DNA of 42,858 nt, taken from the IMG/VR virus record IMGVR_UViG_3300030106_001004, positions 1 to 42,858 of that record; one strand, 5' to 3'. This DNA is from a virus. The translations under genes were made by a program, and so were the position numbers. Below the pieces are notes generated by a model. That model ran no database searches, was not told the origin of the DNA, and saw only the letters and a list, made by a program, of their open reading frames with translations. Shown piece by piece: positions 2,968 to 40,289 of this stretch; position 1 is the stretch's first letter; the number at the start of each line of letters is the position of its first letter.

Positions 2968-3162
2968 ATGAGTGGTCACAATAAAGAGATAGTATCTCTA
3001 ATAGAGGATAGACTAGAGAAAGGTAGAAGAGAATATAAACAAGAGGTAGATGTATTTGATGGTAGAGACTGGACTAGGGAAGCATTAGAAGAACTACTAG
3101 ATGCTTGTGTCTATATAACAGCAGAGATACTAAAGATAAAGAAGAGGAGTGAGAATGAGTAG
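2968..3162 (+). CDS. MazG-like small helical protein (possible nucleotide pyrophosphohydrolase half)
   Basis: Seen: 64 residues with KGRREYKQEVDVFDGRDW followed by EALEELLDACVYITAEILK (residues about 37-56). Known: MazG-like and phage dNTP-pyrophosphohydrolase proteins carry a Y-G/K start and an EELLDaxxYxxAE helix that binds Mg. The protein is about half the usual domain length, so it would have to act as a dimer or tetramer, or may only be a relic. It lies directly before the annealing protein gene and overlaps it by 8 bases. Confidence 0.5.
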   Translation: MSGHNKEIVSLIEDRLEKGRREYKQEVDVFDGRDWTREALEELLDACVYITAEILKIKKRSENE

Positions 3163-38799: not shown

Positions 38800-38889
38800 A
38801 TACGGGCTCTAAGCCAAGAAGCTACTTAGTTTACTTAGTAAAAGAAAGAAATATATTACTAACGTAATATAAAAAGAAAGAAAAGATGA

Positions 38890-39198
38890 ATGGCAAAGGT
38901 GATAAGGATAGAACCTCTGATATTAAGAGGTATAAAAATAACTACGAAAGGATTTTTGGTAGTAAACCTGCTACTACAGCAACTAGACCTAGACAAGATG
39001 TTTCAAGAAACAAAGTGGAAAGAGGTACAAAGCGTAGAAAACAAGGGTTATGAGGTAGAAAAGGTAACTATGGTAGCAGGAGTACGTGGTAATGAAGCAG
39101 AACACGAGATACTTGCATACCTTTACTATATTGTAGACACGAAAACTGGCGAAAATTCACTCAAAACTAGAAAACCTACACATATACCCGTATTTTAA
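38890..39198 (+). CDS. Hypothetical early protein
   Basis: A 102-residue protein (MAKVIRIEPLILRGIKITTKGFLVVNLLLQQLDLDKM...) with a first helical part, a middle of strands and a basic end. The ribosome site is weak (AAAGAAAG). First gene after + strand motif copy 2, so probably made very early. It may be a host take-over protein, but no motif is recognised. Confidence 0.55.
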   Translation: MAKVIRIEPLILRGIKITTKGFLVVNLLLQQLDLDKMFQETKWKEVQSVENKGYEVEKVTMVAGVRGNEAEHEILAYLYYIVDTKTGENSLKTRKPTHIPVF

Positions 39199-39297
39199 AT
39201 AAAATCTCCATATATGGGCAAAATACAGCCAAATAGAACTATTTCTATATTGTACACTTACCTACTATTTAAAAAAAATTACAAAATATTTTAAAAA

Positions 39298-39330
39298 TAC
39301 TTGTTTTAAGTAGCTTTTCATTAGTAAATT
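39298..39330 (+). promoter_or_regulatory. Bipartite promoter-like motif, copy 3
   Basis: TACTTG (39298-39303), 17 bases, TTAGTAAATT (39321-39330), preceded by TTTTAAAAA. It lies in a gap of 156 bases that also holds a CCATATATGG palindrome (about 39209). The next gene starts 25 bases later. Confidence 0.6.
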
Positions 39331-39354
39331 CAATAAATAAAAAAGGTTGAAAAA

Positions 39355-39588
39355 ATGAAAAGAAGGTTAGACAAAGCTCTGGGTAATGATTTTTCTAGTG
39401 AATCATCTATAAACAATATAAATTCTGCAATAACTTTAGCTAAAAGTATGAAAGTATACGATGTAGTAGACCCATCTGGTAAAATAATGGGTGAAATAGC
39501 AGAAATAGTAAGTAGGCTACAAAATGCAGAAGAACTAGAATCTGTAGATATGAACGATTTTGCAGGGAGTTTAGACTTCCTATCCTAA
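39355..39588 (+). CDS. Hypothetical small early protein
   Basis: A 77-residue protein with a basic first segment (MKRRLDKALGNDF), then SMKVYDVVDPSGKIMGEIAEIVSRLQ and an acidic tail (ESVDMNDFAGSLDF). It has its own promoter-like motif, with AAAAAGG upstream of the ATG. Followed by a 431-bp gap. Function unknown. Confidence 0.6.
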   Translation: MKRRLDKALGNDFSSESSINNINSAITLAKSMKVYDVVDPSGKIMGEIAEIVSRLQNAEELESVDMNDFAGSLDFLS

Positions 39589-39649
39589 AAAAGTAGTATA
39601 ATTTTGTGTGTAGCTCTTATTTGCGTTATACCCCCCTCCCCTATCTCCG

Positions 39650-39715
39650 TTTGAAATTTCAAATCTTGGTTCGATTTTTGGAATAGTGGTTCGAATGTTC
39701 GACTAGCCAGTCGAA
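39650..39715 (+). promoter_or_regulatory. Operator-like cluster of TTCGA repeats and palindromes
   Basis: GGTTCGA occurs at 39668-39674 and 39688-39694, exactly 20 bases apart. A third TTCGA begins a 7-4-7 inverted repeat, TTCGACT-agcc-AGTCGAA (39698-39715). Upstream is TTTGAAATTTCAAA. The 20-base spacing (two helix turns) suits cooperative binding of a regulator. No T-run follows, so not a terminator. Confidence 0.45.
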
Positions 39716-39765
39716 AAAAACCCTATAGTTAAAATAAATGACAAAAGCAAGCATTATTTTTTTGA

Positions 39766-39829
39766 GTGTGATATACGTCACACTATTAAAATTAACTATT
39801 GACTTTTGGCAAAACACTCTAATTATAGT
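39766..39829 (+). promoter_or_regulatory. CRP-type site with sigma70-like promoter
   Basis: GTGTGATATACGTCACAC (39766-39783) has both consensus CRP half-sites, TGTGA-N6-TCACA. TTGACT (39799-39804) and TTATAG (39823-39828) follow as -35 and -10, 18 bases apart. The expected start near 39835 puts the site centre about 60 bases upstream, as in class I CRP activation. It would drive genes from 40020 on. Confidence 0.5.
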
Positions 39830-39921
39830 TTCAATATATTTTTTTATTTTCTAGGTATTCTCCTAGATAATCGCTACTTTCCCCAATATGAAATTTTCTA
39901 ATAACAACAAAGTAGTCTTAA

Positions 39922-39936
39922 TGAGAATCAATCTCA
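39922..39936 (+). promoter_or_regulatory. Fur-like box
   Basis: TGAGAATCAATCTCA fits the 7-1-7 Fur pattern TGAnAATnATTnTCA with one mismatch. It lies about 87 bases after the predicted start site and 84 bases before ATG 40020, so it could act as a roadblock or on a second promoter. Short motifs like this arise by chance in AT-rich DNA. Confidence 0.3.
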
Positions 39937-40019
39937 ATAAGGTTTCTATAGGAAATGCTTATAGATAATCTTTAGTAGATAATATATCATTGGACAAACC
40001 AAGCAAAGGAGAAGGTAAA

Positions 40020-40289
40020 ATGAGTAAAATCAGTAATACACAGTTAAGAGAGATGTTAGCTTTAGGACTAATCACAGCAGAGAAGTTCCAAGAGTCTATA
40101 ACTCTGGGGGTAGCTAGTGCAAGCAAGAGAGGAAAAATCGACGTAATGTGCGATAACTTCCCAGAGTTTGCAGAGATAAAAACCAAGCTAGATGAATTTC
40201 ACACTACTAACAAAGATAAGGTAGATGAAGTTATGACAGAAAACGGTTTTGAACCTGTGACGAAAATATCTCTTAACATAGCAAAGTAG
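40020..40289 (+). CDS. Hypothetical early protein
   Basis: An 89-residue protein starting at ATG 40020 (AGGAG upstream); a longer reading from TTG 39990 is less likely. It begins MSKISNTQLREMLALGLITAEKF, resembling small helical DNA-binding proteins, and has a charged helical C-terminal half. First gene after the CRP-type promoter and followed by a terminator, so a one-gene transcript is possible. Confidence 0.65.
   Translation: MSKISNTQLREMLALGLITAEKFQESITLGVASASKRGKIDVMCDNFPEFAEIKTKLDEFHTTNKDKVDEVMTENGFEPVTKISLNIAK

What the first reader, a model, noticed from the sequence alone, without database searches (positions are those of the whole stretch)
39766..39835. Perfect CRP-type palindrome in class I position before an early phage gene
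TGTGA-N6-TCACA with extra flanking G/C symmetry lies about 60 bases before the predicted start of a TTGACT-N18-TTATAG promoter. CRP class I sites are centred at -61.5. A chance perfect match is unlikely (order of a few percent for the window), and its phasing makes it less so. It suggests that the phage reads host cAMP/carbon status and that the host has a CRP/Vfr-type regulator, as in gammaproteobacteria.
Basis: partly seen in the sequence, partly recalled or inferred. Interest (0 to 1): 0.65.

Follow-up and report, generated by a model that had tools for sequence, protein, structure and literature searches.

The report
Conserved CRP-type site in phage promoter
A perfect binding site for a CRP-family activator (the family that senses cyclic AMP in E. 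coli) sits between two phage promoters at the activating distance, is kept intact in eight related marine phages while the DNA around it changes, and matches promoters of a likely but unconfirmed host group, the uncultured Marinimicrobia, rather than gammaproteobacteria.

Summary
In detail: TGTGATATACGTCACA at 39767-39782, chance expectation 0.04 per window. Eight related phage contigs carry a perfect copy at the same place, arms 10/10 identical while flanks fall to 47% identity. The distance to the rightward -35 is exactly 16 bases in every carrier. In four of five divergent carriers a second -35 lies 16 bases away on the other side. The site is thus centred near -60 of two divergent promoters, the class I position. 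Closest relatives without it have the whole 39.65-40.28 kb control cassette replaced. The gammaproteobacterial inference is not supported: terminase and portal relatives occur in Marinimicrobia assemblies, and genomes of that phylum use TGTGA-N6-TCACA-N16-TTG promoters, one with the identical 16-mer, and encode CRP-type regulators and nucleotidyl cyclases. The -10 element is weak; neither host nor effector has been tested. Unexpectedly, sibling cassettes carry arrays of an iron-regulator (Fur-type) box. CRP control of phage promoters is known (phage T1); the two-sided, swappable arrangement is a variant.

The parts
39767..39782 (.). CRP-type palindrome TGTGATATACGTCACA (dyad extends to 39765-39784)
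   Evidence: Exact match; perfect in eight other phage contigs with diverged flanks; identical 16-mer in a Marinimicrobia promoter, L181
39799..39804 (+). -35 TTGACT of the rightward promoter, 16 bases from the site
   Evidence: TTG at 16 bases in 5 of 5 divergent carriers
39823..39829 (+). Weak -10 of the rightward promoter: TTATAG (N18) or TATAGT (N19)
   Evidence: Sequence; TATACT N18 in L013, TTAAAT N18 in L003/L007/L083
39745..39750 (-). -35 TTGCTT of a putative leftward promoter, 16 bases from the site on the other side
   Evidence: TTG at 16 bases in 4 of 5 divergent carriers; TTGACT in L063 where left-flank identity is only 0.36
39722..39727 (-). -10 TATAGG of the putative leftward promoter (N17)
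   Evidence: TATAGG also in L068 and L044, TTAAAT in L063; moderate support
39698..39715 (.). Inverted repeat TTCGACT-N4-AGTCGAA at the predicted start of the leftward transcript; possible operator or hairpin
   Evidence: 7-bp-arm repeat; related TTCGA-rich repeats in several relatives
39922..39936 (.). Iron-regulator (Fur-type) box TGAGAATCAATCTCA in the leader of the first gene
   Evidence: Only exact copy in the window; motif enriched in Marinimicrobia genomes and found at iron genes
40020..40289 (+). First gene of the rightward unit, 89 aa, helical, function unknown; fast-evolving family
   Evidence: SD AAAGGAG; homologues at 21-94% identity in the same place; model pLDDT 85.6, no fold match
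39650..40285 (.). Exchangeable control cassette (promoters plus first gene)
   Evidence: Relatives with 97-99% identical terminase match up to 39641-39716 and again from 40253-40287, with different sequence between

Best explanation
The palindrome is a binding site for a host CRP-family activator. It sits midway between two divergent sigma70-type promoters, at about -60 of each (class I geometry), where a bound dimer would recruit RNA polymerase to promoters with poor -10 elements through the alpha-subunit C-terminal domain. Rightward it would drive the operon that starts with the 89-aa gene at 40020, among the probable early genes. Leftward it would drive transcription of unknown role, antisense to the small + strand genes at 38886-39588. 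The most likely host is a member of Marinimicrobia. Shown: sequence, conservation, spacing, cassette exchange, the same architecture in Marinimicrobia genomes, and presence there of CRP-type proteins and class III cyclases. Inferred: binding, activation, cAMP as effector, early timing, host.
For: Perfect site in eight other contigs at the same place; arms 10/10 while flanks are 47-80% identical to the window. TTG exactly 16 bases to the right in 5/5 and to the left in 4/5 divergent carriers (shuffles 0 and 0.00025, optimistic because the sequences are homologous). In 244 Marinimicrobia genomes, TGTGA-N6-TCACA-N16-TTG: 41 hits against 9 for the reversed control; with the gap left free, 6 of 15 hits lie at exactly 16, control 0; several are intergenic, before a conserved small secreted-protein gene. 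CRP-type DNA-binding domain in 179/244 genomes, recognition helix SRETVSR and nucleotide-pocket motif GEM..RSAN; class III cyclase domain in 205/244. Host link: terminase and full-length portal relatives (portal E 2e-77) in Marinimicrobia contigs, against a best portal hit of 1e-6 among 50,697 phages. The window encodes no Crp-type DNA-binding domain (PF00325).
Against: The rightward -10 is weak and drifts between carriers. Most relatives do without the site. Host assignment rests on distant homologues (25-30% identity) in MAG contigs that may be free virus, and only the Marinimicrobia and SAR324 phyla were searched with terminase. One of the two genomes holding those contigs (G199) was not among the listed CRP matches. 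Several host hits at 16 bases are orthologous promoters, hence not independent. No binding or expression data exist.
Confidence: 0.7

Rival explanations
1. The palindrome is the operator of a phage-encoded regulator that silences or coordinates the two divergent promoters, and its likeness to CRP boxes is coincidental.
For: Phage control regions often carry operators between divergent promoters; the cassette swaps as an immunity-like block with its first gene; the window encodes many unknown small proteins.
Against: The site lies 16 bases outside each -35 rather than over a promoter; its core equals the classical CRP box in both arms and the identical 16-mer occurs in a host-phylum promoter with the same spacing. 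Carriers keep it with different first genes (L013 against window).
Confidence: 0.15
2. The site binds a CRP/FNR-superfamily regulator that is not a cAMP receptor (responding to redox, NO, other nucleotides or nothing), so the phage reads some other signal.
For: The superfamily is diverse; cyclase domains do not prove cAMP signalling; the effector cannot be read from DNA.
Against: The host-phylum proteins keep the nucleotide-pocket motif GE..RSA and a CRP-like recognition helix; cyclases are widespread in the phylum.
Confidence: 0.3
3. The palindrome is part of the replication origin (an initiator or architectural site), and its position near promoters is incidental.
For: Cumulative GC skew turns near 39 kb, and the region is AT-rich with repeats.
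Against: A single copy rather than an iteron array; fixed 16-base distance to -35 hexamers on both sides.
Confidence: 0.08
4. A chance match without function.
For: The expectation of 0.044 per window is low but not negligible among many possible motifs a reader could notice; matches with up to 2 mismatches are no commoner than chance.
Against: Perfect retention in eight other contigs with diverged flanks and fixed spacing.
Confidence: 0.02

Closest known systems
Class I CRP-dependent promoters (E. coli lacP1 type, from general knowledge)
   Same: Two perfect TGTGA/TCACA half-sites with 6-base spacer centred near -60, upstream of a -35 hexamer with a poor -10
   Different: 16 bases between site and -35 (17 in lac, from memory); the same site serves two divergent promoters; phage-borne; spacer T-RTRM-G differs from the E. 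coli preference
Phage T1 pir promoter, repressed by host cAMP-CRP (PMC6737242)
   Same: A phage promoter that takes host CRP as input
   Different: In T1, CRP represses pir and glucose relieves it; here position implies activation, with a conserved perfect site, in an uncultured phage of probably another phylum
CRP-type promoters of Marinimicrobia (L171, L172, L174, L176, L180, L181)
   Same: TGTGA-N6-TCACA, 16 bases, TTGAAC or TTGTAC, -10-like TAATAT in some; one identical 16-mer
   Different: One-directional, before a small secreted-protein gene; -35 TTGAAC instead of TTGACT
Fur boxes
   Same: Phage-family repeats TGAGAYTNARTCTCA form a 7-1-7 dyad like Fur sites and occur at fur/iron-transport loci in SAR324, Marinimicrobia and Cloacimonadota genomes
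   Different: Inner positions differ from the gammaproteobacterial consensus; arranged as arrays of up to about six in the phages

Membership tests
CRP binding site | TGTGA-N6-TCACA dyad | tested here: met
   Exact in window and eight other contigs
CRP binding site | Purifying conservation above flanking DNA | tested here: met
   Arms 10/10, flanks down to 0.47
CRP binding site | Host encodes a CRP-family protein able to read TGTGA | tested here: inconclusive
   Yes for most genomes of the inferred host phylum, but the host itself is not proven
CRP binding site | cAMP-dependent binding by CRP | not testable with these tools
   Needs purified protein
Class I CRP-dependent promoter | Site centred near -61.5 (or one or more helical turns further up), on the same face as the -35 | tested here: met
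   Centre at about -59.5 to -61.5, constant 16-base gap in carriers; start site only predicted
Class I CRP-dependent promoter | Recognisable sigma70 -35 and -10 | tested here: inconclusive
   -35 TTGACT clear; -10 weak and variable
Class I CRP-dependent promoter | Activation through alpha-CTD contact | not testable with these tools
   Needs transcription assays
Fur box (side finding) | Occurs at fur or iron-uptake genes of bacteria | tested here: met
   FeoB, ZIP transporter, ferric-binding protein and fur, and porin/FMN-bind/ApbE loci

The most novel reading that the evidence does not exclude
A family of marine phages, probably of Marinimicrobia, keeps exchangeable control cassettes that plug host nutritional regulators into its divergent promoters: a two-sided class I CRP site in some, arrays of Fur-type iron boxes in others, both in a few (L013, L063; the window has one box). 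Phage gene expression would then be set by host carbon and iron status, or the arrays would titrate the host iron regulator and so raise iron uptake during infection.
Probability: 0.35. Interest if true: 0.75.

Novelty: new variant of a known kind. Interest (0 to 1): 0.5.

Why it matters
If true, a phage of an uncultured ocean phylum conditions its transcription on the host's CRP regulator, and sibling phages exchange that input for iron-regulator boxes. It would give a sequence-level, testable case of how phages couple infection to host nutrition, and would provide regulatory motifs that help assign hosts to uncultured phages.

Tried and rejected
DNA search of the locus against 50,697 phage records: no match. 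Terminase, portal, helicase, capsid and amidoligase searches in phages gave only distant hits with mixed hosts, and one 1027-aa structural-region protein gave none. Terminase scan of GTDB contigs found no relative. Pattern scans of all viral contigs for the site plus TTG returned some unrelated hits, about as many as chance would give; a few (L092, L100) look like genuine promoters of other phages but were not pursued. SAR324 was considered as host: terminase there only 25% identical. Paper searches found no description of this arrangement, but only open-licence papers are held. Metagenome numbers were not found in papers. Fold search of the first gene product: no match. Rfam and tRNA scans: nothing.

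Full report
What was checked. The window is a 42,858-base virus record with genes for terminase, portal, major head protein, DnaB-type helicase and exonuclease. Gene direction and GC skew diverge around 39 kb. The palindrome TGTGATATACGTCACA lies at 39767-39782 and is the only perfect CRP-type box in the window; expectation by chance is 0.044. Its symmetry extends to AGTGTGA-N6-TCACACT. TTGACT begins 16 bases after it.

Conservation. A terminase search in viral contigs gave 80 loci. A perfect TGTGA-N6-TCACA occurs 3.46-3.87 kb from the terminase gene in seven of them (L003, L004, L007, L013, L044, L063, L068) and upstream of the homologous first gene in L083. In an ungapped comparison the ten arm bases are invariant, whereas flanks are 0.47 (L068), 0.52 (L063), 0.58 (L044), 0.68 (L013) and 0.80 (L007) identical to the window. 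The spacer is also restrained (TGTGATRTRMGTCACA).

Geometry. Over five divergent carriers TTG lies exactly 16 bases to the right in all five, and exactly 16 bases to the left (reading the other strand) in four. Shuffling the flanks gave such agreement in 0 of 20,000 (right) and 0.00025 (left) of trials, which overstates significance because the sequences are related; but L063 has TTGACT on the left where left-flank identity to the window is only 0.36, and L068 keeps the right-hand spacing at 0.42. The leftward element in the window is TTGCTT-N17-TATAGG (39750 to 39722), also TTGCTT-N17-TATAGG in L068 and TTGACT-N17-TTAAAT in L063. The site thus lies near -60 of two divergent promoters. Activators of the class I kind act from there; repressors usually overlap the promoter. 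The leftward promoter has moderate support and points against small + strand genes, so its purpose is unknown.

Cassette. Relatives with 97-99% identical terminase (L002, L005, L006, L008) match the window up to 39641-39716 and again from 40253-40287 (for L002, a weak match resumes at 39919), with different sequence between, and lack the site. The control region with its first gene is therefore an exchangeable block, and absence of the site is replacement, not decay in an intact promoter. The first gene encodes an 89-aa protein of a fast-diverging family (21-94% identity), predicted helical without structural match.

Host. No cultured phage is close: best terminase identity 28%, one portal hit at 1e-6. 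A repeated motif of sibling cassettes, TTGAGAYTNAGTCTCATTATCA, was scanned against all GTDB contigs and gave three hits: Marinimicrobia (porin and FMN-binding protein), Cloacimonadota (between FeoB and a further gene followed by a ZIP-type transporter) and SAR324 (porin, FMN-binding, ApbE). A second SAR324 copy lies between a ferric-binding-protein gene and fur (FeoB, ZIP, ferric-binding protein and Fur were named by reading the sequences, not by a family search). The core TGAGAYTNARTCTCA occurs in 103 of 244 Marinimicrobia genomes, about 139 sites by my count against 4 for the reversed control. Searching Marinimicrobia genomes with the terminase gave E 4e-44, and those contigs carry relatives of portal (E 2e-77, full length), the small terminase subunit and, in L131, the major head protein and two further structural-region proteins. 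SAR324 genomes gave only 3e-22. Marinimicrobia is therefore the best host guess, about 0.6, with the caveat that no other phylum was searched in this way and that MAG contigs can be free virus.

Does that phylum use such sites? TGTGA-N6-TCACA-N16-TTG has 41 hits against 9 in the control. One hit (L181) carries TGTGACGTATATCACA, the reverse complement of the window's 16-mer. L171, L172, L174, L176, L180 and L181 form a set of promoters before a small secreted-protein gene, -35 TTGAAC or TTGTAC. When the gap is left free (4-30), six of 15 hits with TTGAAC lie at 16. A Crp-type DNA-binding domain is found in 179 of 244 genomes, with recognition helix SRETVSR and a nucleotide-pocket motif of the form FFGEMSLLDGExRSAN, and class III cyclase domains in 205. 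CRP plus cAMP is thus plausible but unproven.

Comparison. CRP-regulated phage promoters are known: in T1, cAMP-CRP represses pir, shown in a cell-free system (PMC6737242). A two-sided class I site in an exchangeable cassette was not found in the papers searchable here. It works like a class I promoter; membership in the strict sense awaits start-site mapping and binding tests.

Verdict. The site is real, conserved and most likely a functional input for a host CRP-family activator (0.7). The gammaproteobacterial inference is not supported. The most interesting lead is the combination with iron-regulator boxes in the same cassettes.

Noticed in passing
L005, L006, L008, L013, L014, L026, L027, L063 upstream of the promoter; window 39922-39936: Arrays of three to six Fur-type boxes (consensus TTATTGAGAYTNAGTCTCATTATCA), mostly 30-45 bases apart, in the control cassettes of related phages; single copy in the window. 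The motif is enriched in Marinimicrobia genomes and found at iron genes.
   Followed up: partly
39698-39715: Inverted repeat TTCGACT-N4-AGTCGAA right at the predicted leftward transcript start, with further TTCGA repeats at 39650-39700; may be an operator of a phage regulator.
   Followed up: no
39650-40285: Control region plus first gene is exchanged as a block between otherwise nearly identical phages.
   Followed up: partly
39000-40000: Cumulative GC-skew minimum at the divergence point in AT-rich DNA, a candidate replication origin.
   Followed up: no
L092 around 3027-3067 and L100 around 1515-1552: Unrelated phage contigs with TGTGA-N6-TCACA, 16 bases, a -35 and a plausible -10 (TATACT, TAGAAT); could be further CRP-type phage promoters or chance.
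   Followed up: no
L004/L030 (contig IMGVR_UViG_3300030101_002855, 63,940 bases): One contig carries two terminase genes of this family (99% and 90% identical to the query), possibly a chimeric assembly.
   Followed up: no
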